A stretch of DNA of 64,000 nucleotides from Nymphaea colorata (lineage: Eukaryota > Streptophyta > Magnoliopsida > Nymphaeales > Nymphaeaceae): the NCBI RefSeq assembly GCF_008831285.2, contig NC_045138.2:31281934-31345933 (forward strand), in the 5' to 3' direction. A program made the position numbers and the translations under genes. Positions within the stretch are counted from its first letter, which is position 1. Each line of letters starts with the position of its first letter. The notes beneath the pieces were generated by a model. It was given only the letters and a program-made list of their open reading frames with translations, was not told the DNA's origin and searched no databases. Below are positions 12,901 through 62,583 of this stretch, piece by piece.

Positions 12901-13310
12901 AAACATCACAATCACCCCATCTCTTGGAAAAGGATTTGGGAGACTAAGGAAACTGAAAAGTGGCGTCAATACATTTGGATAAAAAATGGTTTTCGTAGGG
13001 CGATGTGGACGATTTACATTGGGTGTCAAGGTAGAACCACGATTGATATCAGACTCAAAAAATTAGGAGCGCAGTTAGCATCAAGGTGTGTTTTGTGCCA
13101 CAATCACGAGGACGATGATAGCCACCTATTTTTTGGCTGCCCAGTGTCGAAATTGCTATGGCAATTCATTGCAACTAAATTCAATCAGAAGATTCCTAGA
13201 GATAACACCAATGTCTCATTTGGTGGTTTAAAAGGAAATTTAAAAGGAAACTATGGGCGAGCATATGGAAAACAACTTTCCACATGGCTATCTGGTACCT
13301 GTGGCAGTTG
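9903..13310 (+). pseudogene. LINE ORF2 remnant: endonuclease, reverse transcriptase and zf-RVT domains
   Basis: ORF2 of plant LINEs nicks the target and copies the RNA. The endonuclease region begins with the NIRGLAG signature near 9907. It contains CLGDFNGV (near 10300) and the SDHNP motif (near 10560). The reverse transcriptase has SAPGLDGFP (near 11250), IDFNKAYDR (near 11640), RQGGPLS (near 11815) and the catalytic FYVDD (near 11950). A zinc-binding zf-RVT motif (CVLCHNHEDDDSHLFFGCP) follows at about 13087-13140. One frame runs from about 10510 to 12690 broken only by stop codons at 10953, 11667, 12117, 12228 and 12429. Frameshifts lie near 10510 and 12690, and more damage lies before 10200. 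It cannot make an intact enzyme. Confidence 0.9.
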
Positions 13311-13888
13311 AAGAACAAGGTAAAACATGATAATGAACAAATTGTAGGTGCCTATTATCCTAGATTTTGGGAATCTTGCATAGAACAATATAAAAAAGTG
13401 AACCAGGATAGAGTGGAAATCTGACTATGTCAAGGTATCCCATCGGTAGGCTGGAACTTCAACATTCATATTGCATCTTGGCATGAGAAGGCTTGCACCG
13501 TACTGCAGGACTGCTTAGAAGCTACAATGAAAGATACAGTTTTAATATATGCTCTTGGTCGAAAGAAGGGTGCGTGTTATCTGATAATTGGGTTCTGAAC
13601 AAAAGTTTAGGCAAGATTAATACTAATGAGCAGACGATAATCATACAAGCCAACAACGACGCTTGGAAAGATGATATGGACAAAGTCATAAAAGGAACTA
13701 CATAAAGGGCTAGGCTTCTTGTGCACATACAAAGACATTTTAATAGATTACAACTGTCATATCAACAACCATCAATTGAAGTTTGTTTGGTAATGTAATC
13801 ATCATGACAAGGATTTTAATTTTTGTTGTAAATACCCCATTTTTGTCTAATAAAATGGTAGAGGGCCTATCCCTCGGCAGGCTTTCAC

Positions 13889-24122: not shown

Positions 24123-26141
24123 GAAACGGGTCCGGATCAAAACATGAAAAAGAATGGATTTGATTAATCCGTATCAGATCCAAGATCCAAATGGAGTCGG
24201 ACCAACTACGACCAGACAAGAATGAGGACAGAAACAGAAAAAAGGAAGGCAATGGCTAATTTGAGAGGGACAGAAAAACTGGAGAGAGAAAGAGGGACCA
24301 ATTCACCAAAAGAGTCCTTTCAGGCGTTCCGCCCGTTAATTGGAAAAAAGGAGTGAAAACAGAGAATCTCTCTCTCTCTCCTCTCTGTCTCTTTCTCTCT
24401 CTCTCTTATTCTGAGGGGAAGCTAGAGAGGAAGAGAGCCAGAAGGAGAGGAAGGACACCCATTTGCTGAAGGGTTGAGGAAGAAGGAGATGAACAAGTAG
24501 TGGATTTCTTAGACGAGGAAAGAAAAAAAGAAGAAGAAGAACGGAGCAGGATCTAAATCATTTTTCTTTTCAGTATTTATCTGTATCTAGTTTCATCGGG
24601 TGGAGAGTGCTTCAGATCCTTCAGGTATCTCGCTGTCCTTTTGTTTCTTTCTTTTCCTTTTGTTTTGGGGGTTTGGAGAACTGAGTTACTAAATGGTTTT
24701 CATTTTTTTCTAATCAAGTTCTTTGACGGTTGATTGTGAAAAATGGCTGCCCATCGCTGGCCATCGTTTCTACTCTTCTTTGTCAATTTTTTTTTTATTG
24801 GGATTGTACTTCTGTTTTAGGCAGTTCTTGGATTGCAGGGGGGTGAGTTCTTCCCCCCACCCCTTCTCTCTCTCTTTTTTGGATACGTAATTTCAATGAT
24901 GGCAACCTGATTAAGGTTCTGTCTTTTCAAGTGGGGTTCTTTATTTTGGTGGAAGTGATGTAAAAGCCTTTTGGGTTGGTTTTCAATATTATCTTTTTGC
25001 TTTTTTTTTTTTTTCTTCTTCTCTTTGGCGTTTTTTCTCCCTTTTTTGAATTTGGGGATCCTGAGGTTTCAGCTGCACCTTGTACGTTTGGCATTTATTA
25101 GGGTATTTTTATTAATTTTTGTTGGATTATTTGCTCCATCTGAACAAATTAAAGTGGTATTGGTTGGGATTCTTTTTCTTTCTCGGGTTCTTCATTAGAT
25201 TTTTTTTGTTCGTCTTCGAGGAAGGTTCATTTATTTCTTATCCTCAAGCGTTGGCGCGGTTACTTTGCTTAAAATTTGTTTTAGTATCGAGTTTGAGCCT
25301 CTCTCTCTCTCTATCTTTCTCTCTCTCGGGGAATTATCTTGCCATTGTGGTTCTCGGGATTATGAAGACTGTGTTGGGTTTTGATTTCAAATTGACGATT
25401 TGGTAAAGTTGATACATGGTTGAATATGAAGGCCTTAATAGAAATGCATGGACTTATCCGGATAAAATGGGATAAGTTCTTTATTTTTCCCATTATTATG
25501 GAGAAACGAAGCAGATTTGTTTATATTCTTGGACGTCCTTGGTAAGGACATGTACTCAAATACCCGGGGGCTGAAAGCCTGATTAATGTGAAGATCTTGA
25601 ACATAACTTGATTTTATGTGGAATTTGGCGAGAATTTTTTGCGAGCCATATGAATATCCTAACTGTCATGTGACTCCCATAACCAAAATTTATGTCGAGT
25701 CAATGTCTTGGAAGCCTCAGATTCTCCCATTCTTTTGTGAAGTTTATGCCTGTTATGTTTTTCATGCTCATTCGGGTAGCACAGGATATCATACAAGTGT
25801 GACAGAGCTGTTTATTGTATTCTGAGTCCCGATTGAACATTTTTGCTGCTTTTTTTCTTTTTGCTTCCTCTTGTAGCATGTAGTACTTACTTACTTACAA
25901 GTTACAATATATTTTTCTTCTTTTTAACTTCAGAATAGTGTATTTGCACCGGACAGCTTATCTTGAAGTGATGAGTTGATTTTTAGTCTTCTCACACCGT
26001 GGATGTTGGCAGCGATCGTATATCAGAAGTTGACCGTATATACACAGGAGTGATTTAATTTTCATCCTATAAGAAGCAGTCAGGGCTTGGGAGATTGATG
26101 AAATGTCGTCTCTATGTGTTACTCTTTGATACCGTGTTGGC
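24123..26141 (+). other. Promoter and 5' untranslated region of the RING-H2 gene with a probable leader intron
   Basis: A CT-rich tract (24368-24412) and GA-rich sequence precede a plausible leader exon ending at about 24623, where CCTTCAG is followed by GTATCT. A plausible acceptor, TTTTTAACTTCAG, ends at 25933, about 210 bp before the start codon. The implied leader intron is T-rich, about 1.3 kb, and contains a CT run near 25298-25327. Its open frames (24971-25198, 25119-25406) are T-rich and unconvincing. I see no clear TATA box. Confidence 0.5.
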
Positions 26142-27886
26142 ATGTCCATGGATGTTTCCCCTTATGAAATAGGTTCTGAAGAGCAGAGTGAGAGACATCC
26201 TTTGTTAATGGAAAGGACAGTAGGTTCATCAGATCATGAGCATGTTATAAATGTAATGCAGGGTACCGCAACTCCATCAAGCTCTCATGACGATCTAAAC
26301 AGCTTAGACTCATCACATGAGGATAGGTCGCCTACTGACAGTACACAGGTCCAACACCCTCCATCTTCATCTACCTTGTCTTCTTCAAGAAACAGTTCAT
26401 TCCTGAGAAGAGGTGATAATTATGGCCGCCGACACAGAAGTCCTCTCAACTCAGGGTTGTGGATTTCAGTTGAACTTGTAATTGCAGTTAGCCAGATAAT
26501 TGCGTCGGTAATTGTTTTGTCACTGTCAAGACATGAGAAACCAAAGGCTCCACTGTTTGTCTGGGTTGTGGGTTATGCTTCTGGCTGTCTTGCTACCCTT
26601 CCACTTCTTTATTGGAGGTACATCACACGTAATCGTTTCGCGGAACAGGACTCAGCTCAGATGCATGTGGATTCTAATCGGGATAACCCTTCTCTGGAAT
26701 CAGCTTCTTATGCTGTGATGTCAACTCCTCAAGCTCCTGAAGCTGAAGTGCATCATAGAACCACTTCAAACTCATGGATTGATCAACATGCAAACCCTAG
26801 AAGCACAAGGTAATATTGGAAATATGCTTGTGAACCGCAGGCATGATCCTGACTTCAATTACTTTTGATTTGTGAAACTGGACATGCTATGGTTGCAACT
26901 AAGTATAGTCTAGCAATGATTGTCATTCATTCTGTCAGGTGAATGCAGGTACGAGTGTGGGTACGGCAAACATACACACACACACACACATGAAAGAAGC
27001 TTACATGTTGATATATCAAAAACTATATGTATTATGTAATGTTAAGTATGGATTATTATACCTGCAAATATAAATATCTGCATTGAGAGTTGTGCTGGCA
27101 TAGGCATGGTACCTGCACTCCAGTTGACTTTCGTGTGGTGGTCTATATGTGGGATCTATATGATGTGACGTTTATTCAACCTTAGAGAGTGAAAGTTTTC
27201 TACACTTTAAACTATAGCTAATCGCAATTTATCAGCCACTATATATGAAGAGAAGAGGTCTGAGAGTGTTGAAATAACAATTATTTGTGATGCAGATTGC
27301 GTTAGTAACTTAGTATGAATTCAGGAAATAATGTGGACCATATTTTGATGAAAGTAGAGCAGATTGATAATGGCATTTGCTATTATTATCTCTTTCAAAA
27401 TTAGGTGAACTCAAACACTGTGGAGTGTCAGTTTATGGTGTTCATAGATGAGGGGAGGGATTTGATATCTTTGGGACTTTGAAGTATGAAACCAGTTGTC
27501 ATGAAGTTGTGACAGAATAGAAAAACTCCCTGATTTGGGATATTATTGTATACTGATAAGATTAGAGGTTTGTATAAACTTAAGCTTGGCGTTCATGTCT
27601 TTATATATTCATGCTGGCTGTCATAAAGTAACAGTTTGTTGAGAATGTAGAATAGAAATGTGATATCTGAGGAAGGGAATTTACTGTGGGAAGCTGTAGA
27701 AATATCACATACTGTAGGCACTACTGACTTCTTCTGTACTTAGAAGGCCTACTGCCTTAGGAGCTTTATGAAAGATGCGCAGGCTGAGTTTTTCAACTAA
27801 TTTCGGTGATGTTTGGAAAAATTCAAATGGTATGTCACATGGGTGCAGCGTGCTGCAAACTGATGGGTGTGAGTGCAGCAAGGGGG

Positions 27887-34946: not shown

Positions 34947-36069
34947 TCATGCAAGGATCCATGCTGCAACGGCCATCGAGCTCAACACAGTTCCGAGACT
35001 GAAGATGTGCGCAACGACTCCTCCGCTCATGGAAAATGCAGCTTCTGGAGGTAGGGCAAATGGAAATGAGGAGGAGGAGAAGGTTGGTTTTGTGTCCAGC
35101 GAAGGCGAAGAAGCTGGAGAAGCTGATTTAATGAAAGCTGCCGGCTTTTGCGTCTTGAATACAAGGGCGTCGGGAGAATCCGCCGGCAGACCCAAAATGG
35201 CTGCAAATTAACCAAAAGCAGGGACCCTTTAATGTTAGCATTCTTGATCAACACAAGGATGACATGAATTAGATTTTACCATTCCAATATTGATTTAAAT
35301 TTGAAGGCATGTTTGGATGACATGCATAAATGTTGTTTCAGATGCAAAACGTCGTCCTCGTTCTTGTCTCGATTGGTTTGCGAAAAACCCAGTTTTGATA
35401 AAACGCTGCTTCAAACACATAAACCAAGTTTCAAACTAAAACTATATAAAAAAAACTAGTTTTCTCACCCAACATCATTTTCAATAGGTATCATCCAAAT
35501 GGAATATGAATTAATAACACAAGGATTTTAACTCAAACGTTATAAAAATTGGTTTCTGAACCAAATCAGCATTTAGGATAGAAATATTGACATAATTACT
35601 TTTGAAATATGAATGATGAAATATATAAAAATCAGTAAAAGTATGAAAACATTCAAAAATTAGTTAAAATTTAACACATGAAACCAATTATAAATCGGCC
35701 AACTCGGACCGATCTTGAGAGAGAGGAACGATTACCTGGGCAGTCTGAGATACCATTGGGGACGCCACAAACCTCCGGTGCCTGCAGCATGTTGGCGTAG
35801 TTTGGGGTGTACCAGCCATTGGTAGTGTTGGCGGAGTCTCGGAGGAACCTGCAGAAGCAGAAATCAAACTTGTCCTTCATCTCCTTGAGACCTTCACAGC
35901 AGGTGGCGTCCGGGGCGGCGCCTTCCGTGTTGACATACTGGCAGGCCACGGCGGAGGTGAACGTAATGGTTATGCAATCGTCCAAGTTCTGCTCCTCTGC
36001 TGATGAGACCACCAAGCCGGCGGCCACAACTAGCAGCACCATCCCGCTCACCATCCAGGAAGAAGCCAT
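34947..36069 (-). CDS. GPI-anchored lipid-transfer-like protein (eight-cysteine), two exons
   Basis: Exon 1 is 36069-35736 and exon 2 is 35200-34947, joined by a phase-1 GT-AG intron (GTAATC ... TTTGCAG), giving 195 residues. Residues 1-24 form a signal peptide. The eight cysteines (32, 43, 57, 58, 71, 73, 101, 110) follow the C-C-CC-CxC-C-C pattern of the plant lipid-transfer/protease-inhibitor superfamily, with Phe between the CxC pair. Exon 2 encodes ILGLPADSPDAL, a Ser/Pro/Lys-rich linker and a hydrophobic C-terminus (AVAAWILA) typical of a GPI-anchor signal, so the mature protein should sit on the outer plasma membrane. Members of the LTPG type bind or move lipids for cuticle or suberin, but this copy's ligand is unknown. 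It has no neighbouring paralogue; its relatives lie at 56.9-62.6 kb. A possible N-glycosylation site is Asn81. Confidence 0.88.
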
Positions 36070-36227
36070 GATTCAAGCCTGCAGCTTTTTCTGATCTTCT
36101 CCTTCCTTCCTTCGCTGCAAGAAACTGCAGGCCGGGGTTGGAGACTGTCCTCCTTCTTCCCCGGTCGCAAGCTTCTTTAGCAGGTGCCTTTCTCCTTCGC
36201 CCTGAGGAATGGGGAGGAGGGGATGCA

Positions 36228-37264: not shown

Positions 37265-37818
37265 TAATTTTAAGTAATCAAAGTAAGAAACTAAAATGTG
37301 TAAAAGAACCAACAAGGAATCTGCAAATGCGTCCCCATTGAATCGGACCATGCATTGAATCGAATAGGTTTGCATTTGATTGGAATTAGCCGTTTGAGGC
37401 CAACCGATTTTGACAACAGTACTGCTTTCAGCAGCTTCAGATGCAAGCACGTAAGACACCAGAATACACAAACAATTTCAATCTTATGATCATTCTTCTG
37501 TCTCCATCGACTGATGATCACAAGCAAGTACAAGTTTTAAATGAAGCTTCTCAACGCAATAATGGCACAGGCTAAAAACTTTCAGATCCATTTTACACGC
37601 CCTTAACTCTGTCCAATGGAGACCAAATTCCTACGTAACATTTACAAACATCTACAGTCCTCCCGCCAATTTGCTAAATAAAATGCAGTTTCGGGAACCA
37701 TGGTAGTCAAAATTTGTACTCAAAACATCCGCACACACTGCTCCCAATCCGGCAAAACGAGAAATGAAGACAAGTAGAAGAAGGATACAACAAGACAGTT
37801 CTACTGCTTATAGGAGTC
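37265..37818 (-). other. 3' flank of the coiled-coil gene
   Basis: Sequence downstream of the stop codon at 37819-37821 (minus strand). It includes a probable 3' UTR; the minus-strand frames here are short and unrecognised. Confidence 0.5.
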
Positions 37819-40800
37819 TCAACCATGGATATGCTTCCACTGTTTGAGTAGCCAATTCTTGTGCTTTCCTTTGCCCTTTTTTGTTGCTGATGATGATGGT
37901 TCTTCAATACCCGAGTCTTCAGAAATTTGCTCTGTTCCTCCAGTCACCTGTAAATCATGATGACAGTGTCGAACATCAATGGATGCTAAGGGTTGTTGGT
38001 CGAGGTCAAATGTTACTGTTACTTTTTTCTTATATGTATTTAGATGTTTCTGTAATTAATTAGTTGCAGACATTTTAAGAATGGTCTTGATTCCATGACT
38101 GGTGAGAAAACAGAATGCGATTAAAGAGACTATATTAGATCAGGTGGCTGGCATAAGTTTTTTATGTGTGAAGTTGGCACTCTGTAGGTTTATGAATATG
38201 AAGGTATGGAGTTGGCTATAATAATTAATTGTCTGAGAAAATTTTGGAGTCATGAATGTCACTTCCCGTGCTATCAAAATTCCATAATTAACATGAAAGC
38301 GTTTAAGAAGGAGATCAAACGCCATGATACTGAAGTTGGAACCATGCAGAAAGCGCCCCGTACAGTTTTATGGTTACAGCGTTTTATGCTTTCTACACCA
38401 ACAAGTTTATTTAAGAAATGTTTTTTCTCTCTGGTTTTCTCTCTTGATTAAGGCATTGTCTTTCTTGATTAAGGGTTAGGATTTTCTCCTGACACACACA
38501 CGCACGCAAAAACACGTACACATGGGTGCATGCAGCTAGATCCCAATATAATGCCTAAAACTATTTTACTACAAAGGAACTAAATTTCATCTGGATTTTT
38601 CACAGAGATGTGTGTGAAGCAGAAGCTCATGATGTAAGAAACTAATGGCTAAATATGAGCAAATTGTTTCCGAAGCACACACTTTCGTTGACATAAAAAT
38701 TATTCAAGCCAAAAGCTTAAAACTACTCTTTAAGACAGATTTAAGAATTGGCGCTTACATGTTGCAGCTCACTGTCGATGCCCCTTATCTGTTCTTCAGA
38801 CTCGGAAGTTTGACCTGGTGTGAGTTTTTCTTCTTCCAACTCCTTGTGCACCAGAACAATGTGTTCTTCCTGTAGAGAAATGAAATTGCTGGTGTTTGTA
38901 AGTTGTGAGAACATGCAAAGTATGACGGTGGAAAAGGTAGATAGAAGAATTGCCATCAATTATAGCATTAAAGTAGGTGAGATAGAACACGTTTTCCTAC
39001 TTATCTAAAGAGAGACCAAGAACCATGGCGAAGGGCAACAACCTACTTGCTGATTTCTAAGGAACACCCAGTTTGTCGCTTCATAAAAAGAACAAAACAT
39101 TTAGAGAGATGGTCGCCTTGATAATTAAGGAAATCGCCTGTACAGAGTGGCTGGGTTGGGGATGAATTTATGGCATCAATCAGCCTTTGCTAGACAAGCT
39201 GCATCAAGTAAAACCTTCAGGTACTCGTCCCACCACCAAAAAGTGTGTTATAAGGTTCATCCTCGTAGAAGAAAAACAAACCACAACTATCAAATCGTTC
39301 ACCAACATCCTTAAGCTTGAACGTCATTAATTTTGTCCCTCTAGCCAGTACTATAATCATTGACAGGCTTTGCATTTAGATGCCTTGATATGTTCTGGTA
39401 ACAAAGATCACTAGGAATTTTCTGATAATCAACACGACACTCATATTGGTCTCAGAAATGCCACCCTATATCTTCTTTTATTTATCACCACTATTTAAGT
39501 GACTCCTGCTTCATTCATTGGATGATCATGTATTTTCTAACAGCAGAACTTATTATCAGATAAGGTCTCATAACCATTTATTAGGGGTGCCATATGAGAA
39601 GTTGACAAAGCAAAAGAAAAGTACCCGTTCCTTGGTCTGATCTTCTGGTGGTTCCAACTCTAGCTGTAGACTGTGTGAAGATATCTGCAACATAAGCCAC
39701 TGAATTTCAGATTTGAGCAACAGGAAAGTGCAAGTATTCAGGCTACTACCTTAGCGAATAGTACACGCATGCACCATCCCTCCATAACACACAGGGATAT
39801 CTATCTAAATAATAAAAGGATGCATAAATTTTTTATTTAGGAAGATCTGACTAGCAAATAATGTGAACAGTACCATGCATTCCTTGGGAGCAGTAACGTA
39901 GAAATGACTGTGAAACTGTTCAATGACCTATACAAGTCTGAAAGGATAATTTGTTCGTTGAGTGAGCTGATATATATGTCTCCTACGACGGAGAAGCAAT
40001 TTTGACATAATCTGCATTTGTAGCGCAGAGCGGATATAAAGCATGGACCGAAAGCATAATACAAACCTGAGATTCGTGCTGCCGTCTGTCAACTTCATGT
40101 CCTTCTGAGGAATCATCGGTATTCTTGAAAGCATGAATACGGTGAACCGTTTTGTTGGTTACTGTTTCAGGTGAGCTCTGTATCTGTAACTCGGACACTT
40201 GGGTTTGACCTGAAGTTATCTCAGTAGTGAGTTTCAGGTCTGTTTCAGCTAGATCTTCATTCTTTGTTTTAGTTTTGCTACAGATGCTTTGGTTCAAGTC
40301 AGTAAGAACCTCATGCTCTATGCATGTCTCTGTGACAACCTTGAGTTCCTGTTCTATCTCCAGTTTCAAAGAGGATTTGTCTAGATTAGCTTTCAATAAC
40401 TCATCTTCACTTTTTCCCTGTGCTGCTGTAACCAGATCATATTTCAATTGCATGACTTTCTTTTTGAAATTTTCTTGCTCTGTCATAATGAAGGCCAGAT
40501 GTTCCTTCAAATCGGCCTCCTTTGTGTCTGCATCAAACTGTGAAAGCTCCAATCTCGGAACTTTTACCAGAGAAGCTTCAAGGTCTTGTGAAAGTTCGGA
40601 AACTTTAAAAGCATATTCATCATGTTCTCTTTTGGCATTCATAAACTTTCTCTCTATTAATGTTATATGCTCTTCAACCTCGTGGTTCCTATCTCTTGAA
40701 TTTCTCAGCAATATTTCTAATTCAGCCACCTTTTTCTCTGCACTTTCTGCTTTGGAGCGTGCTATATGCATAAGTTCCTCAAGCTGAAGGCATCGCTCTT

Positions 40801-43800
40801 GAGTAATGTTAGCACGACCCTCCTGTTCCACACGTTTCTCCATTGCAACTACCAGATCAACCTCTAACTCCTTAATTTTCAATCTTGACCGATCTAAACA
40901 TGATTCAAGTTGGCTAATCTCATCCGAAAACCTTTTTCTTTCTTCGAGGAGCTGTTTTACACTTTCCATCAATTCCATCTCCTTTTCTTGTGCATTTTGT
41001 AAAGCAACTTCCAGATTAAAGATTTTTGCTAAAGATGCCTCTAGTTCCACAGAAACTTCAGATAACCTGCTGGAACATTGTTCTAGTTCAATTTTTACCT
41101 CACTGTACTTTGTTTTTATGGAATTGCACTGCTCTTCAAGTTCATTTTGTTTCTGCTCTGATGTCCTTAATAGTAGTTCAATATCTGTCACCTTTCTTTC
41201 TTCTTGCTCTGTCTTGGAGTTCAGTTTTTGGATTTGGAGTTCAAGCTCAATGCACATCTCGTGGTTCACGTTGATTAGTCCCTCCTGTTCAGTGCATTTT
41301 TTCCTAACAACTTGTAATTCTTGTTCTAGCTCCAACCTACTTGAACATGAATGATCCAGGTCAAACTCTAACTGCTTCATTCTATCTTTAAATTTCTCCT
41401 TCTCTGTCATGACGAGGACCAACTGTTCCTTTAACATAGTTCCCTCTGTGTTTGCATCATGTAACGCAAGCTCTAGCGTTGATACTTTTGTCAGAGAAAC
41501 TTTCAGGTCCTCAGAAAGTTGGGAAACTTTGAAAGCATATCTTTCATGGTTTGCTTTTTCTTCCTCCACTTTGGAGTTTGCCATTTCGATGAGGTCTTCG
41601 AGCTCGTGGCATCTCTGGCCATATGTTTTGGCATCACTCTCGTACTTATTACAGTTTTCTGTAACGTCTTTCAACTCTTGTTCTAGCACCAAGTTCCTCG
41701 AAGTTGACTTATTCAGGTAAGCTTCCAATTCCTTTATCTTATTTTGGAATTTTTCCTGCTCTTCCATAAGTAAACCAAAATGTTCCTTAAACTTGATTTC
41801 TTTTGTGTCTGAGTCATGCCATGCATGCTCCAGACTCGACAGTTTAACCAAAGAAACATCCAGTTCTTGAGAAATTTTTGCAACTTTGGCTTCATATCTT
41901 TCACGTTCTTCTTTTTCATTCAACAACTCGATTTCTGTTGACTTTAAGTGTTTCTCCAGCATGTGCTCCTTGTTCTTTGAGTTCTTCAGAAGTGATTCTA
42001 GTTCAGCTAAGTTTCTTTCTGCATTCTCTGCTTTGGCATTTGAGATCTGGATTAAGCTTTCAAGCTCAAGGCACCTCTGCTGAGTTACATTGATGCGGCT
42101 CTCATATTCCACAGATTTCTCCATGGCAACTGTCAAGTCTTTCTCAAGCTCCTTTATTTTCAGGCGTGAATTTTCTAATGCCAATTCAAGATGGCCCATC
42201 GTATCTAAAACCTTACTTCTTTCCTCCACAAGCTCCCTTCTATTTTCCATTAACTCCATCTCCTTTTCTTTTGCATTTTTCAAAGAAACCTCCAAGTTGA
42301 GTATTTTTGCTAAAGAAACATCCAGTTCTGCAGAAACTTCAGACGTCTTGCTGGAATATTGTCGGCACTCTTCTTCCACCTCAACATACTTTGTTTTCAT
42401 TGATCTGCAATGTTCTTCAAGATCATTGCTCTTTTGCTCTAAAGTTTTTACTATCTGCTCAAGCCCCTCCACCTTTTTTCCTTCCTCTTTGGCTTTGGAA
42501 TCAGATACTTGGATTTGGTATTCGAGCTCCAGGCACCTCTGTTCGTTCTTGACTGCAAGCTCCTCTTGTTCACTAATTTTCTTCCTAACAACTTTCACTT
42601 CTCGTTCTAGCTCCAAGGTCCGTGAATGTGACTGATCTAGTTCAGACTCCAATTGCACAGTTTTGTCTTCAATTTTCTGCTTTTCTTCCAAAACCAGAGC
42701 CAAATGTTCTCTCAAAGTGGTCTCTCTTGTGTTTGCTTCGTGCAATGCAAACCCCAAACTTGACACCTTTTCTAAAGAAATCTCTAGCTCTTTTGATAAT
42801 TTGTCGACTTTGGAAGTAGATCTTTCATACTTTGCTTCTGCTTCCTCTGCTTTGCAGTTTGACATTTTCATGAGGCCTTCCAGCTCCAGGGACCTCTGGT
42901 GAGTTGTGTTTGCAGAATTCTCGTAATCAGTAATTTTTTCTGTAGTCGTTTGAAGCTCCTGTTCTAGCTCCAAGTTCCTTGAACGTGAAATGTTTAATTC
43001 GGATTCCAAATGCATCATTTTCTTTTCAAAATTTTCCTTCTCTCTTGTAATCTGAGCCAAATGTTCCTTCAACTCAGTCTCTGCTTTGTTGGTCTCAGAT
43101 TGAGCAACCTCAAAGCTTGACACTTTTGCTAGAGAAACTTCCAGGGTTTGTGAAAGCTCCAAAACTTTGGAGGCATATGTTTCACATTCTTGTCTTGAGT
43201 TCAGCAACTTTTCTTCCACGGATCCTATATGCTTTTGAAGCTCATGCTCCTTTGCTTTTGATTCTTTCATCAGCATTTCTAGTTCAGCCACCCTTCTTTC
43301 TGCATTCTCGGCTTTGGAGTTTGAGATATGGATTAGGTCTTCAAGCTCAAGGCAACGCTGATGAGTAATATCTGCACGGCCCTGAAATTCCACAGATTTC
43401 TCCATGGAAACAGTCAGGTCACTTTCCAGCTCTTTGATTTTCAGCATCGACTGATCTAAAGCTAATTCAAGGTTGCCAATCTCTCTTGAAAGCTTATTCC
43501 TTTCTTCCAAGAGGTCTCTTATAGTTTCCATTGATTCCATCTCTTTTTCTCTTCCAGTTCGTACAGAAATCTCCAAATTAGATATTTTTACAATAGATAC
43601 CTCCAGTTCGCTAGAAAGTTCAGATAATCTTCTCGAGTACTGATTGGATTCAATTTCCATTTCCAAATATTTTCTTTCTGCAGTTGTACACTGCTCTTTA
43701 AGATCATGTTCTTTCTGTTCAGAATTCTCTAGTAGTAGCTCAAGCTCCCTCGCCTTTCTTCCTGCATCCTCAGCTTTGGAATGTGATATCTGAATTGAGG

Positions 43801-46405
43801 ATTCAAGGTCAAGGTTTATCTGGTTAATGGTGGCGACTTGGCTCTCCAGTTCCAGACATCTTTCACTTGCAACTTTCAGCTCTGCCTCCAGTTGCAAGTT
43901 CCTTTGAGAAGATTGACTTATAGCAGATTCCAAGCACATAAGCTTATCTTTGTATTCTGATATTTGGGTTTTTAGAATCTTGTTTTCTTCTTCGACCTTT
44001 CCTAGCATTTCAGACAGCTCGAAAGTTCTCTCTTGGAATTCTTTCGCAACTTTATCTGTCTCAGAACTTCTTGCTTGAGCCCAATCTAGCTGTTCTTCAA
44101 GCTCTAGTTTCTTTTGCCTCACATGGATCAATTCCGATTCAGTTACCTTAAAATTTAATTCTACTGTTTCTCTTGCTGCATTAGACGCTTGAAGCATGCT
44201 TTGATACTCAAGATTCAATTTTATAGCATCTGTAGCTTTAAGTTCGTATTCAATGTGGAGGTCTTCAAGAGTCTTCAGCTTTAGCTCCAATTCAGCACAA
44301 CGGGACATAGCCTGTTCCAGGCAGGAGTTTGATTCAGCATTCTTGTGAATGGATGTTCTCAGCTTATTTTCAAGATCAAGGATTAATTTCTGCATCTGAT
44401 GCATCTCCTGATTAACTGAAGATACGGTAGTTTCTGCATCTATTTTCATTCTAGTCATAATGGATAGTTCCTCTTCAATGTTTAAGACCCGTTCTTCTTG
44501 GCTCTTTAAGTTGCCTTCCAGCAGCATTATCTTCTTCCTCTCCTCAATGAACGTTAAATCTAACTCGCTCAACTCAGTTATTTTTGACTGAAGGTCTTCT
44601 TTGCATGCAGTAAATGATTTGTGCAAAGCTGCAATTTCTTGTTTCAGTCTGTCTTCCGAGGCTCTGGTCAAATTTAATTGCTCTTCCACCTCCCTAATAA
44701 TTCTTTCCCCGGAGCCTATCTGTTCCTCCAGATCTAATTCACGTGCTTTTGAAAGACTAAGCTCATTTTCGACTTCAGAAAGCTTTATTAACGTATTTCT
44801 GAGAGTAACCTCCGCTTGTTCACTATCAGACATTCGTCCATGTAGCTCCCTCAGTTCCTCTTGAAGAGAGGCAACTTGAACTTCCATCTCTTTGGCATTA
44901 GTATTTGCTAGTTCCAACAAATTCTGCAACTCCAGAGCCTTCTGCGCTTCTCCCATCAAAGATCTCATCTCTTGTTCCACTGTTTGTGTTCTGTGCCTCG
45001 AAAGTTGTAGATCTGCACTTAACTTGTTGACTGCCTCTTTCGCCACAACCAACTCGCTTTGGAATGCATCTTGAGACTTAAGTGCAGATTGCAGAACCTC
45101 ACTCTGTGAATAGTACATTTGCTCATACTCTTTGGCACGTTCTTCAGCAGATTCAAGTTTGTGCTTAAGATATTTTTGCATCTGTTCTAGGTCCATTGAG
45201 TGCCTGGTCTTCTCCTTCAATTTTTCCTTCATAAAGGCAAATTCTTCTTTCAGTTTAGATTTCTCAAGTTCTGAGAATTCAATGTCTGTGTTTATCTTTT
45301 CCAGATATAGTTCGAGAGAATTCATTTTTTCCTCCATTTCCTCAACAGAGCAACTTTCTTCTTCCTCATGATGCACATGAACATTTTTCTTTACGAAAAT
45401 TAATTCCTTTTCTACCTTTATAAGCCGTCCATCAATAGATATTTCTTCTTGTGCTTCATTGACTATATCAGCAACTTCTGTGGCGCTTGAAGGAGACCCA
45501 TTATATGCTTCCACAACTTCCTGTAAATGAAGGTAAAAGCAATTGAGGAGAACAATAAAGCAACAATAATAACATAAAATGAATCATGCAGCGAACGGTT
45601 GATATGGTTAATAAAGAGAGAAGCATAATAAAAGAAACGGATCCTACAGAGCTTTTCAAATACTTGCTAACCATTAATTTAATGTATGGAAGACTCTAAA
45701 ACCATATTAAGATTCTGGTTTTAACGTTAGAAGAAGACTGCATCTCATAGACATGCAAAAGGTGTAAGCGACAGTAAAGTTCTTCAGCTTTGGTTGTTCA
45801 CAGGTAAGGTTGAATACTATGAGCAATGAAATTATTTCAGACAAATGCAGAAAAGACATTCGTCTTACATAAGAAGGTGGTAATCAATTATTTGAATTGT
45901 GAGAGCTCAAGCTTTTGACTCAAAAATCTGGACTTGGTCTGAAGAATGCTATGCCAAACCGATGACAGCATTTGCTTTGCAGAAAATTATTGCAGCATAA
46001 GTGAGGGTTGATGCCGTTTCTATGTTTCTTTAAATTCGATTTTGGCGGGCAATTTCATAAAATGATTCCTCCGCTTTAACGGCTTCTATTCAGGAGCAGT
46101 TTCTTGAGATTTTATTGAAAATGTTAAGCAGCTATATCTAAATGTTAAAGTTGAACGTTACTTTAAAATTTTGGTTTGGGCGCCGTGCTTAATTTTAAAA
46201 ATTTGTCTTCCTAAATTTTAGACAAGCATCATTATATGTGTTCACATTTTTGAAAAAAGGAAAAACTATTTAAACACACCAAACTGATCAGACAGTGGCG
46301 ACAATCTAAATTTCCTACATAAAGAAAATGATCAGAAATTACCTTTTTATCAATCATTTCTTTCATGTGGACTTCCATGGTACTTTCTTTTGTTTCCATT
46401 TCCAT
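37819..46405 (-). CDS. Long plant coiled-coil protein, PICC/PICL-like, five coding exons, about 1938 residues
   Basis: Minus-strand exons: 46405-46343, 45520-40067, 39684-39625, 38869-38759 and 37947-37819. All junctions are GT-AG and phase 0. Nearly the whole protein is charged heptad-type coiled coil rich in Glu, Leu, Lys and Ser. The start has DGRLIKVEKE, followed by EYEQMYYSQSEVLQSALKSQ, matching the N-terminal layout of the plant long coiled-coil proteins PICC and PICL (Arabidopsis At2g32240/At1g05320), and text such as NTTHQRSLELEGLM supports this. Those proteins are plant-specific and reported at the ER with a role in pathogen-response signalling. Here the C-terminal half of the main exon consists of three units of about 427 residues. 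The predicted C-terminus is basic (KKGKGKHKNWLLKQWKHIHG) with no membrane anchor, unlike PICC. The Met is in the small first exon; the main exon alone lacks an ATG at its start. I am sure of the coiled coil and gene structure, less of exact orthology. Confidence 0.88.
40290..41263 (-). repeat. Coiled-coil gene, internal unit 3 (shortened)
   Basis: Third unit, opening IELELQIQKLNSKTEQE. The landmarks are EASLAKIFNLEVAL, KIKELEVDLVVAMEKRVE and ERCLQLEELMHIARSKAESA. It then jumps from the middle of the unit (VMQLKYDL) towards unit-end-like text (LEIEQELKVVTETCIEHE), so it lacks roughly 100-140 residues present in units 1 and 2. Confidence 0.8.
41264..42545 (-). repeat. Coiled-coil gene, internal unit 2 (about 1.28 kb)
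   Basis: Second unit, opening LELEYQIQVSDSKAKEE. The landmarks are DVSLAKILNLEVSL, KIKELEKDLTVAMEKSVE and QRCLELESLIQISNAKAENA. It is full length relative to unit 1. Confidence 0.85.
42546..43826 (-). repeat. Coiled-coil gene, internal unit 1 (about 1.28 kb)
   Basis: The first of three in-frame units. In translation it opens with LDLESSIQISHSKAED, passes EVSIVKISNLEISV and KIKELESDLTVSMEKSVE, then QRCLELEDLIHISNSKAENA, and ends where unit 2 opens. The same landmarks recur in order in units 2 and 3 at spacings of about 1281 bp. Confidence 0.85.
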
Positions 46406-56898: not shown

Positions 56899-57516
56899 CT
56901 ATATTAGGAGCCATGCAGCAGCTGCGATGAAGCTTGCAACAGTTCCAAGCCTGTAACTCGCCGAACCGACTCCCCCGTTGAATTGAGGAGAGACGGGCGA
57001 GCCAGCAGGGGCGTCGGACAGCAGCGGCACGTTCAAATGCATCCGGAACATGCTCGCTTCATCAGAATTCGGCGACAGCCCCAAGATCTCTGCAAAAACA
57101 GGCGACAAGGTTAGGACCCCCTCCTGGAAAAATGGCAGAAGAAAAGGCAGCGGCGGTCGAGGAGGAAGAATCATGCCTGGACAATCCGAGAAGCCATGAG
57201 AGATCCTGCAGACAATGGTAGACGCCATCACCTCGAGAAAATACGGCGTGTAGACCGGCGACGTCTCGTTGCCGGACAGCTGCAGGTACCTGCAGAGGCA
57301 GCGGGGCCAGTAGTCTTTCAGAAAGTTGAGCGAGCCGCAGCAATCCGAGGTGGGCTTGGATCCGGCCAGCATCACGTATTTGCAGGACCTCAAGAGGTCC
57401 ATCGGCATGTTGCAGCGGAATAGCTCTTCCGGCTCCGGACTCTGGGCGGTTGCCGGCGCAACAGCAAGAAGCAGCAGCAGCACCGCCACCGGGAAGGAGG
57501 TGCCCGTGGCTGCCAT
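56899..57516 (-). CDS. GPI-anchored lipid-transfer-like protein with a GC-AG intron
   Basis: Exon 1 is 57516-57177 and exon 2 is 57089-56899, giving 176 residues. The 87-bp intron starts GCATGA and ends TTTTTGCAG, so the donor is GC. Its position and phase match the intron of the three paralogues. Residues 1-24 are a signal peptide (cleavage likely after ATA). The eight cysteines are 35, 45, 59, 60, 73, 75, 103 and 112, with Leu in the CxC. Asn83 is a possible glycosylation site. Exon 2 encodes EILGLSPNSDEA, a short linker and a hydrophobic GPI-type tail (FIAAAAWLLI). The intron has no stop and a length divisible by three, so the unspliced frame is also open (205 residues) and a one-exon reading cannot be excluded. 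Role: probably extracellular lipid binding at the plasma membrane; ligand unknown. Confidence 0.88.
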   Translation of the reverse strand: MAATGTSFPVAVLLLLLAVAPATAQSPEPEELFRCNMPMDLLRSCKYVMLAGSKPTSDCCGSLNFLKDYWPRCLCRYLQLSGNETSPVYTPYFLEVMASTIVCRISHGFSDCPGMILPPRPPLPFLLPFFQEGVLTLSPVFAEILGLSPNSDEASMFRMHLNVPLLSDAPAGSPVSPQFNGGVGSASYRLGTVASFIAAAAWLLI

Positions 57517-57611
57517 CTTCCTTGCTCTGCTCCCTGGTGTTGTGATTTGATTTCCTCTGTAGATCTCTTGCTCCCCGAGGCTCTCCGATCCGATGCATCT
57601 CGGTGGTCTGG

Positions 57612-57620
57612 CTTTTTTGT
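57612..57620 (-). promoter_or_regulatory. TATA-like element of the 57-kb lipid-transfer-like gene
   Basis: The minus strand reads CTACAAAAAAG here, a weak TATA variant about 95 bp upstream of the ATG. The family block GATTTGCTAAAGAAGG lies about 65 bp further upstream (57671-57686). Confidence 0.5.
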
Positions 57621-57699
57621 AGAGGGGAGAAGAGGAGACGGTGTTTCGATGGACAGGCGGTGGCTGCTCCCCTTCTTTAGCAAATCTTAGCTCGGAAAA

Positions 57700-60499
57700 T
57701 TGCCCCTACTTTTCAGATGGAAAATTGAGTTGGGATTTGCTGGTTCGATCTTCGGGGAACCGTTGGACCTTGACCAATGACCGGACCTCTTCTGTAGATA
57801 TCTATGCTTTGGATCAGGGCCTGACGCCTATCGTTGAATTTACATGCTGTTTTTAGGTTCAAGGGTTTGATCCTGGCTACCCAAATCCAGTTCAACCAAT
57901 TCCACGCAAGTTTTTCAAGCGTTACAAGATCTTAGTTAGAAATGGATCATGTCCAGAAATTCTAGTGCATGATTTGGGCATCTAATTCGTTTTCTTCTCA
58001 TCATATAAGTTTGAGTGTTGTTTCGGCTTTCTTGTTGGGTCGCAGGATGAAATACACCTCTGATTTGCTTAACATAAATTCGAGTTGAGTGTTTCGGCTT
58101 TCTTGTTGGGTGGCAGGATGAAATACACCTCTGCTTTACTTAATATAAATTCGAGTGCTTAATCTGTATTTGTTTGTGCAATTATTTGTATGAAAAGTAA
58201 AGCATGCATGCACAGAGTGTTGGAACGTTTAGAAATACTCATATCTGCTGGGGCATTTGTATAGATCTAAGGATAAATTTTTAAAAAATCACCTTAAAAA
58301 ATAAAGAAATTTTAAGAGACACTAGTTACCACGTAACTCCGCCACTGATTAAAGAAGTCACAGAAACTGAATGTACATATCACTCTTTCGAAATGGTTTT
58401 AAAAAAATAACATGATTGCAATAACTTTTTTGGCCTGTAAAATCAAATCTAAGCAATGAGTTTTTTATGATTTTTTTTCATTCTAGGCATAACCTCACAA
58501 CCGGCTAATGTTCATGGATAGCTAAATATTTAAAAGTGCTATTAAAAAGTAACGTAAACCATCTTAAAACACCATAAACCGTTGCCAACGCTCCTATGGC
58601 AGAACACTTTTAGCCGTAAGTATTTTGTCATCTCGTACCATTTGACAGCCGGTTGATTTCAATTCCCCAATATATAAAGAATTGAAATCAGCTGCCGCTG
58701 GTTTTCTGATCACTAAAAAAACATTAAGCATTGTAACCACTGAATTTTCAATCTGGCTTAAAGTTCGTGCTTTGAAGGATAGACCGTAGATAAGTACGTA
58801 TGATGAGTGGAGCCAACTCAGGTCCAACTTGAACTCGAACTCGTTCGTCTAAGCTTGACTTGTTTGATAAATGAGTCCAGCTAGAGCTTGAGCTAAACCT
58901 CATCAAATAAACGAGTCGAGTTCAAGTTACACGAGCTTGTCATGACTCAGTCCGAGCTAATGTTCTAATGTAACTTTGCGTTTGATTAAAAAAGGTATGT
59001 GTTTTTTCTTTTTTAGTTTTTTTCTTCAAAAAGGGTATTTTTTATCATTTTATTCAATTGACTTTACTTTTTTCGTTGTTAATGCGTTTTTAAAAAAAAA
59101 ACACACATTTTTTTTAACTTAATCATTTCTAAAAATATGCCTTTTTAGACCAATTCAAGTCTTAGATATGCCTTTAGATAATCTGTCAAGCTGTCTCCTT
59201 ATCATTCTTCTTTTTTAGCTTAATTATTTTCTATTATCTTCTTGCTTTATAAGTCATACTTCAAATTTTCTTTCTATATACAACAACTCTAGTCACTGAT
59301 TTTACATCACATAATACTAGTCTGCATATCATTCCCTGCTTGTTTGCTTGTTATTTCCCAATTTACTTGTTTCATATATGTCTGTTTTTGAGTTTCTCTA
59401 TATTAATCCTTGCTTAATGGGGCATTGACAGATTCATCCATGATCTATAGGTATTGCAATAAAACCATGCTTAGGTTTTTCTTAAGCATTCCAAGTTAGT
59501 CTCCCAAACAAAATGGTTTTTCTTCTATTGAAATGACACAAGCGATCTGAAAAAGGAACAGGGAGAGGGTGGAAGAGTGAGTTAGAGAGTGGGATAGGTG
59601 TGCTTTCTAAATTACAAAAGTTCATCCCGTTATATCTTAAACTTGCAAATATCCGGAATGGATCTGAAAAGGGTTTTAGTATCATGATTTGGGATGAAAT
59701 GACGAAGAAGCTGGTTATATGCACCATACTATACTCGTGTATGTATACGATTTTTTTGCACCAACAGTAAAATTTTTTGTAAAAACAAATTTCTGTATCT
59801 GATCTATAATTGGTGTCAGATTTAATATATATGCTGCTTTACGACCATACACCAAATATTTTGTTTCTGAGTTTGGATATCTGACTCATCCGCTAAAGAT
59901 CCAAACCCATTTACATACTAGTTAGATGGATCTGAATTCAGCTTTTCACCAAATCCAGTTAAGTCGGATTCAAACGCTGGATTCGACATGACTCAAGTAG
60001 TTATACACCTTATCCCCTCGTCTAATTTCCATGAGAAGCGAGTCTCTTCTAGGGTGAGTTTCGGGTGAGCATGAAGAATATTTCATCTTACCGCTTGGTT
60101 GAGAGCCTCCTTTAAAGTGAACTAGTAAGAACATCCCGTATGTGCTGAATTCAAATTCGATTGTTAACCAGACTGGAACTTAACTTCTTTTCAAGTTTGG
60201 CGGATCAGATTTAGCTGATAATTTGGATATTGGACAACATCTGAACCAATGACGCCTCCTAAAGGGTTATCTTGTTGAAATTAAGACGAAAACCAATTAC
60301 AATGTAAGAAAAAGGAAAGATAGAATGGAAAGAGAGGCACCACTGAGAAAATGGGATCTGAAAAAGAGGATTGGAACAAGTCCTTTGTATTTTTCATTTT
60401 CAAACCATTGAGATTGACAGCAATGAGGACACACATAAAAGAGATGGAGGAACTGAAGATCGCCATGGATGTCTTGGCTCAGCTAGTTCATGCCTGGTC
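57700..60499. other. Intergenic, no gene supported
   Basis: Holds a 71-bp tandem duplication and, near 58805-58965, a degraded stretch of GAGTTCAAGTT/ACTCGAACTCG text related to the GAGCTCGA repeat family but without clear ends. The frames at 58594-58827 and 59482-59727 are unrecognised. Confidence 0.55.
58021..58156. repeat. Tandem duplication, 71-bp unit
   Basis: TTTCGGCTTTCTTGTTGGGT begins at 58021 and again at 58092. Both copies continue GGCAGGATGAAATACACCTC-like text and end ATAAATTCGAGT, with only a few differences. Confidence 0.88.
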
Positions 60500-61288
60500 T
60501 TAGGCTAGCGCCCATGCAACAGCTCCCATCAAGCTTACCATGGATCCAAGCCCATAGGTCTTCAGGCTGCTCTCTCCACGACTCTCTTTAAGCGAAGAGC
60601 TCAATCCCGCTGGTGCATCCGCCGACACATTCAGATGCGTATTTTCCAACTTAAACATTTGTGCATCATCCGAATCCGGTGGCAGCCCCAATACCGCTGG
60701 AAAACATACCATAAGCACATTAGAATCTTTAATATATATATATATCTTTTGGGCAGTTCCTGATTCAAGTGTAAATTTCGAGGTTTTCGATCTGGGCGAT
60801 ATCTGCATGATTAAAACTCTTTGGCAACAATTAAAAAAAAAAAAAGTTCAAAAGATTGGTGCAATTGTCATTGCTCCGGATCTCTATGCTGTAAATTAAT
60901 GGCATTTTGACAGCAGAGGATACTATATGAAAGGTGCAAAGTATGAGGATCAAGAAGACGTGCCTGGACAGTCTGTGACGGCGTGCGGGACGCCGCAAAT
61001 CTGGGCTGCCTGGTAGAGGTCGGCATGGTGATCGGAGTAGTAGTCGGAAGATTTAATGGCGGCTTCCCTGAGGAACGTGCACAGGCAAAGGGGCCAGTAG
61101 CGTTTCAGAATCTTGTAGGAGCCGCAGCAGTCCGTCGACGGCATCCCGCCTCTCGCATTGACTGCTTCGCACGGCGACAGGATCTCTAGAGAGTTTATGC
61201 AGTCTTCTAGCTCACCTTGAGCATCTAAGGCAGATGCAGAGGAGACAAGAAGCAGCAGCAGCGCCAACAGCACCATGCTTCTGTCCAT
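60500..61288 (-). CDS. GPI-anchored lipid-transfer-like protein with a GC-AG intron
   Basis: Exon 1 is 61288-60964 and exon 2 is 60696-60500, giving 173 residues. The 267-bp intron begins GCACGT and ends TTTTCCAG. A GT donor a few bases on would put exon 2 out of frame, so the GC donor at the conserved phase-1 position is the only reading that joins the family-typical DCP to VLGLPPDSDDA. Residues 1-20 are a signal peptide. The eight cysteines are 30, 40, 54, 55, 68, 70, 98 and 107, with CLC at the CxC. The C-terminus (SLMGAVAWALA) is a GPI-type signal. It is closest in layout to the divergent neighbour at 61938. An upstream TATA box is present. Confidence 0.88.
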
Positions 61289-61937
61289 GCTTACAGCTGC
61301 CTGTCTCCTCCTCCTTCCTCCTTCCTCCCCTTTTTCTTAGACCGGCAACCGATCTTCTTTCCTTGTTTTTCTTGTGGTGTTGGATTCATGGGGAGGCGTC
61401 TGCGTTTTATAGAGGGCTGTGGTCAATGAGAGGCTACCATGGTTTGGGTGTCGTTCAAGCGACGGCCTTTCTTTAGAAAATCTAGTTGGAAGCTGTGGAA
61501 AATCACTTTCCTAATCCTATGTTGAGATGAATCACAGAAAAGAAAATTTTGGAGTGGAAAATCCCAAAACCCACCTGTGATATTGTTGAGCGCACCAGTT
61601 AGACTGCAAATCACATCCCATTTTTAGAATTGGCTAAGATTTTCACCAGATAGTTGCTGGAATGGCTAAAATCGGACAAGTTTATGAATAATGTGACCTT
61701 TAATGGAGTCGCAAGGCAGTTTTCCAACTTGAATTTGCCTAAAAAAAGGAACCTCTTATCCCTCTCTCCATCTTCATTGAATGGCTCATCATTTCTTGCC
61801 CAACCACTCTCTATAAAATGCATGGCCAGCCCTCAGCAATTGCAGGACCAAAGAAAAAGAGGAAAAAGAAGGAGGAGGAGGAAGCAACCGGGGAAGAGGC
61901 AAGAGCAGGGTGCCAACCATCAGCACAGGCTGCAGAC
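61289..61937. promoter_or_regulatory. Shared intergenic promoter region of two divergent lipid-transfer-like genes
   Basis: The 649 bp between the two start codons contain a TATA box facing left (61405-61411, CTATAAAAC on the minus strand) and one facing right (61811-61818, CTATAAAA). A block upstream of each is similar: CTAGATTTTCTAAAGAAAGG on the minus strand (61466-61485) and GAATTTGCCTAAAAAAAGGA on the plus strand (61731-61750). AAAG cores are the binding site of Dof factors, a possible but unproven reading. The arrangement would allow co-regulation, and the ATG at 61818 overlaps the right TATA box so is not in the transcript. Confidence 0.65.
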
Positions 61938-62583
61938 ATGGCTGCAACTGCAACCTTGGCCTTGCTCCTACTGCTTCTTGTTTCCTCAGCATCCGCCTAC
62001 TCCGACTTGCGTGAAATGCTGATAAATTGCCAAGTTCCTATGAACCTCTTGGGACCCTGCAAATTCGTCGCCGACGACGGCCAGAAGCCGGACGAAGATT
62101 GCTGCGGATCGTTCAGGGCCGTGAAACCATACTGGCCGCAATGCCTGTGCTCCTTCCTCCTGCAAACCAGCATTAAATCTTCGTCCCTTTACTCGCCCCA
62201 CCACATGCAGCTGCTGCAAGCGCCGAAGCTCTGTGGCGTCCCTCATGGCATCTCCGACTGTCCAGGTTCGTCTTCCTCCTCCTCGACCGATTGGTCGTCA
62301 AAAATTTCGGTTTTCTTGTTCCATGATCAAGAACCAGAAGCTGCGTGAAATGAAATCTAAGGTGCCTACCACGTGATTTGTAGATGTTCTGGGACTGCCA
62401 TCAAATTCCACCGCTTCGAAGTTGTTCGACGTGGAACACGCATCGTCAGGTGTAGCGGATGATTTGCAACCGGATTCGGCGCTTGGAATTACCAGCTCGA
62501 GCAAAGGAGCCGCTGTGGAGATCTACCGGACCCTGGGGTTGATGGCGATCCTGATGGCCGCAGCCGCACTGATCCTTGCCTAG
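61938..62583 (+). CDS. GPI-anchored lipid-transfer-like protein, two exons
   Basis: Exon 1 is 61938-62265 and exon 2 is 62384-62583, giving 175 residues. The 118-bp phase-1 intron starts GTTCGT and ends TTTGTAG, at the same codon as in the paralogues. Residues 1-20 are a signal peptide. The eight cysteines are 31, 41, 55, 56, 69, 71, 99 and 108. Exon 2 encodes VLGLPSNSTAS, an acidic and Ser-rich linker, and a hydrophobic GPI-type tail (AILMAAAALILA). The start at 61938 is preferred over the in-frame ATG at 61818 because the TATA box overlaps the latter and the signal peptide begins at 61938. Without splicing the frame ends early, just after the domain. Probable role is extracellular lipid binding; ligand unknown. 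Confidence 0.9.

What the first reader, a model, noticed from the sequence alone, without database searches (positions are those of the whole stretch)
40290..43826. Internal triplication of a 1.28-kb coiled-coil unit
Three successive units of about 427 codons carry the same landmarks in the same order (NLE-x-S/A, KIKELE-x-DL, CLELE-x-LI, KAENA). The spacing between equivalent landmarks is near 1281 bp each time, for example 43340, 42060 and 40778 for the CLELE region. The period is divisible by three, so the reading frame is kept. The relatives I know (PICC/PICL type) are shorter, so the array probably lengthened this protein, which would change the span of any tether. The third unit has lost an internal part.
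Basis: partly seen in the sequence, partly recalled or inferred. Interest (0 to 1): 0.72.

Follow-up and report, generated by a model that had tools for sequence, protein, structure and literature searches.

The report
Plant coiled-coil gene with nested repeats
A plant gene for a very long rod-shaped protein grew by repeating one segment in exact multiples of the coil's seven-residue step, and it appears to have lost the tail that fixes its relatives to an internal membrane, so a membrane-anchored protein may have become a free rod.

Summary
The triplication is real, but it is only the top layer. The gene (minus strand, modelled as five phase-0 exons, 1,938 residues) carries eight copies of one basal coiled-coil unit, arranged A154-B154-C119, A-B-C, A-B; the super-unit is 427 residues. 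All periods are multiples of seven, and a heptad tracker keeps one register for 1,474 residues. The same genome holds three more long relatives: c11 with four units, g14b with eight, and g14a with the same three super-units. Downstream of c11 and g14b lie PICC-like tail anchors. The window gene and g14a share a frame shift in the last exon that removes the anchor, and both lack most of the canonical C-terminal half. The unit tree puts the three-super-unit array before the split of the window gene from g14a (dS about 0.9); dN/dS of about 0.28 since then indicates constraint. Best reading: a PICC-family paralogue lengthened by in-register nested duplication, now probably an unanchored cytosolic rod. 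Location, expression and orthologues in other plants could not be tested.

The parts
46343..46405 (-). Exon 1 (21 codons), phase 0; modelled, start codon is a guess
   Evidence: In-frame ATG, GT donor, phase-0 join; no transcript seen
40067..45520 (-). Exon 2, 5,454 bp, residues 22-1839, open throughout; N-terminal coil and array
   Evidence: acceptor CTTCATTTACAG, donor GTTTGT
43832..45520 (-). Non-array N-terminal coil (563 codons); 59/51/48% identical to g14a/g14b/c11
43370..43831 (-). Unit A1 (154 aa)
42908..43369 (-). Unit B1 (154 aa)
42551..42907 (-). Unit C1 (119 aa; lacks 35 aa = 5 heptads)
42089..42550 (-). Unit A2 (154 aa)
41627..42088 (-). Unit B2 (154 aa)
41270..41626 (-). Unit C2 (119 aa)
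40808..41269 (-). Unit A3 (154 aa)
40298..40807 (-). Unit B3 with about 16 extra residues near its end; C3 is missing after it
40067..40297 (-). Remnant of the canonical C-terminal half (aligns with the end of exon 2 of g14b and c11)
39625..39684 (-). Exon 3 (20 codons), phase 0, modelled
38759..38869 (-). Exon 4 (37 codons), phase 0, modelled; 42% identical over 36 residues to an open stretch downstream of exon 2 in c11
37819..37947 (-). Exon 5 (42 codons and stop), modelled; frame-shifted relative to the tail-anchor sequence of g14b and c11, ends KHKNWLLKQWKHIHG
37745..37882 (-). Relic of the tail-anchor coding sequence in another frame, interrupted by a stop
   Evidence: tblastn E 3e-4 with the g14b tail; frames

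Best explanation
The gene is a paralogue of the plant PICC/PICL long coiled-coil family. One ancestral segment of about 22 heptads was multiplied by nested, heptad-exact tandem duplication inside a single large exon: a single unit, then a four-unit form, then the A-B-C trio repeated up to three times. In the line leading to this gene and its sister g14a the terminal unit and most of the canonical C-terminal half were lost (whether in one shared deletion is not settled), and a shared frame shift in the last exon removed the tail anchor. Most likely product (inferred): a homodimeric, unanchored cytosolic rod of about 220 nm in one register, acting as spacer or scaffold rather than as an ER-anchored tether. 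Shown by sequence: array, register, paralogues, tree order, frame shift, constraint. Inferred: dimerisation, location, spacer function.
For: Eight units at 154/154/119, periods all multiples of 7. One register over 1,474 residues at penalties 4 and 6; three composition shuffles gave 174-261. A-type units form one clade, B+C another. c11 has 4 units and its A unit is basal to the other A units (97%); the terminal units of g14b and c11 group together (98%) next to the recalled PICC unit used as outgroup. Units of the window gene and g14a pair by position in 8 of 8 cases, support 85-99%. Tail-anchor-like ends GLKLILVVVSVSLIVGVLLGKRV* downstream of g14b exon 2 and GFKLVVAVALISLTIGLLLGRGN* downstream of c11 exon 2, matching the end of the recalled PICC at E 3e-6 and 8e-10 while g14a gave no match. 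In the last-exon alignment the window gene has 5 and g14a 2 extra bases relative to both, the same shift modulo 3. Window gene versus g14a: dS 0.91 (0.73-1.08), dN/dS 0.29 on the N-terminal part; dS 0.91, dN 0.25 on super-units 1 and 2. AlphaFold2 of super-unit 2 gives helices 2-150 and 157-338, mean pLDDT 75.9.
Against: No transcript was seen; exons 1 and 3-5 are models, and the 3' exons of g14b, g14a and c11 were not fully modelled. Alternative splicing could add a membrane segment: hydrophobic stretches lie downstream of this gene (about 37792, KD 2.34) and of g14a, none PICC-like. At penalty 2.5 the register breaks into 1,310 + 10 + 130 residues. The AlphaFold2 model is a monomer from three sequences with weak stretches (353-355, 357-374). 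dS near 1 is close to saturation and NG86 is crude. One of eight units (C1) aligns best to a different stretch of the recalled PICC (471-599) than the other seven (601-779). B1 and B2 of g14b group with each other (80%), and C units share a 35-residue deletion with X-type units but group with B, so a simple duplication history does not explain all. Function and location are untested.
Confidence: 0.68

Rival explanations
1. The protein is still an ER tether: a membrane segment comes from an unpredicted exon or from dimerisation with an anchored paralogue (g14b or c11), and the array sets tether length.
For: Two paralogues with tail-anchor-like ends in the same genome share the N-terminal coil and unit types; a hydrophobic stretch lies just downstream in another frame.
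Against: The phase-0 gene model ends without a membrane segment; g14a, split off at dS about 0.9, also ends without one in the corresponding exon; the relic frame contains a stop.
Confidence: 0.2
2. The gene is a decaying pseudogene: a broken PICC copy whose array is only a relic.
For: Loss of the anchor and of most of the C-terminal half; fragments of the family in changing frames exist elsewhere in the genome.
Against: 5.4 kb open exon, consensus splice sites, five phase-0 exons; dN/dS 0.29 and 0.27 against g14a.
Confidence: 0.07
3. The repeat signal is only convergent coiled-coil composition.
For: Heptad proteins show raised self-similarity at multiples of 7 (mean 12% versus 8%).
Against: Offset 427 reaches 47% versus at most 18% for 114 other multiples of 7 and 17% in 2,000 heptad-preserving shuffles; units pair by position between the window gene and g14a.
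Confidence: 0.01

Closest known systems
Arabidopsis PICC (At2g32240) and PICL (At1g05320), PMC3581476
   Same: Long coiled coil (expanded in PICC, abstract); N-terminal similarity to a PICC sequence recalled from memory (204 identical of 564 aligned residues, score 789 versus maximum 280 in 100 heptad-preserving shuffles)
   Different: PICC/PICL have a membrane segment 4 residues from the C-terminus and are ER tail-anchored (PMC3581476, passages); the recalled PICC seems to have one unit where the window gene has eight; no anchor in the window gene model
Paralogue c11 (G000:C11, L040/L041)
   Same: N-terminal coil 48% identical; A, B and C/X unit types
   Different: Four units; 499 residues of exon 2 from the terminal unit on; tail-anchor-like end
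Paralogue g14b (G000:C14:4.80 Mb, L011/L012)
   Same: Eight units, first six in the order A-B-C-A-B-C
   Different: Keeps terminal unit, C-terminal half and tail-anchor-like end; one 118-residue unit, and the heptad register shifts once
Paralogue g14a (G000:C14:4.71 Mb, L009/L010)
   Same: Three super-units, no gaps against the window gene across the first two (854 codons); same frame-shifted anchorless end
   Different: Keeps part of C3; 59-60% identical
Tropomyosin (Pfam PF00261)
   Same: Generic heptad coiled coil; 36.1 bits, E 6e-9
   Different: Below the curated cut-off of 38.6; no relationship claimed

Membership tests
PICC/PICL long coiled-coil proteins | Most of the protein is a long coiled coil | tested here: met
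   Heptad tracker
PICC/PICL long coiled-coil proteins | N-terminal sequence homology | tested here: met
PICC/PICL long coiled-coil proteins | C-terminal membrane segment a few residues from the end (tail anchor) | tested here: not met
   Gene model has KD maximum 1.1 and ends KHKNWLLKQWKHIHG; g14b and c11 carry such an end. Rests on a gene model without transcript
PICC/PICL long coiled-coil proteins | Canonical C-terminal coil half after the repeat unit | tested here: not met
   499 residues from the terminal unit on in g14b and c11; only about the last 75 residues of exon 2 align here
PICC/PICL long coiled-coil proteins | ER location, cytosolic N terminus, homodimer | not testable with these tools
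   Reported for Arabidopsis PICC/PICL in PMC3581476 (abstract, headings and passages)
Pfam Tropomyosin PF00261 | Score above the curated cut-off | tested here: not met
   36.1 versus 38.6 bits

The most novel reading that the evidence does not exclude
An ER tail-anchored family has given rise to a soluble molecular ruler: after loss of the anchor, selection has kept a rod of roughly 220 nm in one register, in which eight near-equivalent segments sit 22, 22 and 17 heptads apart and offer position-specific docking sites at fixed distances. The position-by-position pairing of units between the window gene and g14a (no homogenisation) would then reflect different partners at different places.
Probability: 0.15. 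Interest if true: 0.7.

Novelty: new variant of a known kind. Interest (0 to 1): 0.5.

Why it matters
It gives, within one genome, a series of coiled-coil arrays (four units, eight units, three super-units) together with the flanking ancestral segments, so the growth of a long rod can be read step by step and tested against the idea that indels respect the seven-residue step. It also documents the likely conversion of a membrane-anchored protein into an unanchored one by a frame shift, followed by lasting constraint. PICC is implicated in plant immunity (PMC3581476, abstract), so a free paralogue is a natural test of which part of PICC matters.

Tried and rejected
Chance or composition: rejected. 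A young triplication: rejected in the strict sense, since the array predates the split from g14a. Homogenisation of units by gene conversion: not supported for the window gene and g14a, which pair by position; B1 and B2 of g14b do group together (80%). The window gene and g14a as a whole-genome-duplication pair: their dS of 0.91 resembles the KS peak of about 0.9 of Nymphaea colorata (PMC7015852, passages), but 2 of the 3 flanking genes tested have their best paralogue within 35 kb of each other on contig C6, and none of the 3 listed a match on C14, so collinearity does not support it. The species name Nymphaea colorata is my inference from genome size (407.8 Mb versus 409 Mb) and is not established. 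Relatives in viral contigs and genome contigs: none confirmed among 13 and 430 pattern matches; these are viral and prokaryotic collections. Solved structures: none at E 0.01. A stretch KIVLGIILG in intron 4 was considered as an anchor exon and dropped as probable chance. A blastp self-comparison showed no internal repeats in the recalled PICC, but it showed none in the window protein either, so it is uninformative. Papers: PMC3581476 abstract, outline and passages; PMC7322076 passages; PMC7015852 passages; all others in search listings only. No paper on internal repeats in PICC-type proteins stood in the listings of searches; apart those listings were capped, so this does not show that none exists. 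Part of the output was cut and not seen.

Full report
OBSERVATION. The window holds a minus-strand gene whose large exon is open over 5,454 bp (40067-45520). With consensus splice sites, exons 1 and 3-5 join in phase 0 to give 1,938 residues and 224 kDa; these small exons are models without transcript support. Repeat search found one landmark in 8 copies at 462/357 spacing. On the protein the five strongest off-diagonals are 427, 154, 854, 273 and 581, all multiples of 7. Identity at offset 427 is 47% over 834 residue pairs; 114 other multiples of 7 average 12% (maximum 18%), and 2,000 heptad-preserving shuffles reached at most 17% at that offset.

ANATOMY. The array is A154-B154-C119 twice, then A154 and a B with about 16 extra residues. 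C units lack 35 residues (five heptads) near their start. Between super-units, amino-acid identity is 48-53% and dS 0.94-1.15. A and B units are older: 34% identity, dS 2.1 in one and saturated in two of three comparisons. A simple heptad-tracking model keeps one register for 1,474 residues at penalties 4 and 6; at penalty 2.5 it breaks into 1,310, 10 and 130 residues. At penalties 4 and 6 the same model gives 1,529 for g14a, 1,236 for c11, 1,214 and 623 for g14b, and at most 465 for the recalled PICC; three shuffles gave 174-261. At about 0.149 nm per residue (recalled) 1,474 residues are about 219 nm. AlphaFold2 on super-unit 2 with its two sister super-units gives long helices, with weak stretches at 353-355 and 357-374. 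No solved chain matches at E 0.01.

RELATIVES IN THE SAME GENOME. The genome search reached G000 (407,766,735 bases, 783 contigs). With the N-terminal coil as query, 4 of 27 matches cover nearly the whole query: the window gene W, g14a and g14b on C14 (about 88 kb apart), and c11 on C11; the other 23 are short. N-terminal tree: ((W,g14a)99,g14b)93 with c11 and the recalled PICC outside. W and g14a align without gaps through super-units 1 and 2, 854 codons. g14b has A-B-C-A-B-C, then a 119-residue X unit and a terminal T unit; c11 has A, B, a C/X unit and T. In the unit tree (29 units, one of them from the recalled PICC, used as outgroup) the T units of g14b and c11 form a pair (98%) beside the outgroup; A units form a clade with c11 basal (97%); W and g14a units pair by position in 8 of 8 cases (85-99%); c11's third unit groups with g14b's X unit (92%). 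Reading: one ancestral unit, then a four-unit form, then multiplication of the trio before the split of W from g14a, with at least two A units already present before g14b split off (91% and 81%). Against a simple history: g14b's B1 and B2 group with each other (80%), c11's B unit is placed weakly (58%), and C and X units share the same 35-residue deletion but do not group together.

RECALLED PICC. Seven of the eight window units align best to residues 601-779 of the recalled PICC; unit C1 aligns best to 471-599 (score 126 against a shuffle maximum of 89). The others score 102-225 against shuffle maxima of 76-108. It is backed by the paralogues: g14b and c11 align with PICC 603-1068 at 168 of 454 and 176 of 455 identical residues.

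LOSS OF THE ANCHOR. Downstream of exon 2, g14b has an open stretch ending KPKRKGKRKAEEATQAVEASPLLGLKLILVVVSVSLIVGVLLGKRV, and c11 one ending SPSKRKNKKKSEAAATQTVQGSPLMGFKLVVAVALISLTIGLLLGRGN; both match the end of the recalled PICC (E 3e-6 and 8e-10). This fits the published layout of PICC and PICL, with the membrane segment 4 residues from the end (PMC3581476, passages). W ends KHKNWLLKQWKHIHG and g14a RRKHWLLRQLTGKKV. In the DNA alignment W has 5 and g14a 2 more bases than g14b and c11 at the same place, the same shift modulo 3; the old frame in W still reads ATQTVEAYPWLRLL, then a stop, then a hydrophobic stretch (tblastn E 3e-4). g14b and c11 both have 499 residues of exon 2 from the T unit onwards; W keeps about the last 75 residues of that part, while the end of g14a's exon 2 aligns best with the array, so a single shared deletion is not shown. 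W and g14a diverged with dN/dS 0.29 (N-terminal part) and 0.27 (super-units 1 and 2); since the frame shift is shared, this constraint acted after the anchor was lost.

MECHANISM. Most likely a parallel homodimeric rod that is not fixed to the ER and serves as spacer or scaffold. Arabidopsis PICC forms homodimers in a membrane yeast two-hybrid system (PMC3581476, section heading; the passage describes the assay only). The dimer, location and function of the window protein are inference. A still-anchored tether through a paralogue partner or an unseen exon stays open.

COMPARISON. By descent it belongs to the PICC/PICL family; by anatomy it fails the tail-anchor feature, so I do not file it as an ER tail-anchored PICC/PICL protein. 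The likeness to Arabidopsis rests on a recalled sequence; the likeness to the anchored paralogues rests on tool results.

AGE AND SPECIES. Genome size suggests the water lily Nymphaea colorata (409 Mb, PMC7015852), an inference. Its whole-genome duplication has a KS peak near 0.9, dated at 107 Ma (98-117). The W/g14a dS is similar, but two of three flanking genes point to C6, not C14, as the duplicated block of the window, and the third has no listed match on C14.

Noticed in passing
G000 C1, C5, C6, C10, C18, C431 (L026-L039); query residues 12-88 of exon 2: The start of exon 2 (about 40-70 codons) recurs as short dispersed copies (L030 and L031 translate identically). They may be gene fragments carried by a mobile element; no element was identified.
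   Followed up: partly
L013 (C7:8.777 Mb), L015/L016 (C15:2.56 Mb), L017 (C7:1.696 Mb): Array fragments lying in changing frames; the C7:8.777 Mb copy is 92.6% identical to unit A2 over 121 residues, so at least one partial copy is fairly recent.
   Followed up: partly
window 35671-36072, 56899-57705, 60950-61336, 61743-62348: Cluster of four lipid-transfer-like, cysteine-rich secreted protein genes (family name recalled, not tested); one search finds matches at these four places and weaker ones elsewhere.
   Followed up: partly
window 1772-2449 and 26130-26813: Two flanking genes whose best paralogues lie within 35 kb of each other on C6 (3.35-3.38 Mb): probably the duplicated partner block of this region; one search lists no long PICC relative there.
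   Followed up: partly
window 9145-13311 (+): Open stretches resembling a LINE-type reverse transcriptase, in pieces (recognised by eye only).
   Followed up: no
unit positions about 24-59 of C1, C2, g14b X and c11 third unit: The same 35-residue deletion in unit types that do not group together in the tree; possibly a chimeric origin of C by unequal crossing-over.
   Followed up: no
unit T of g14b and c11: Both terminal units lack 7 residues (one heptad) relative to A and B units, another indel that keeps the register.
   Followed up: no
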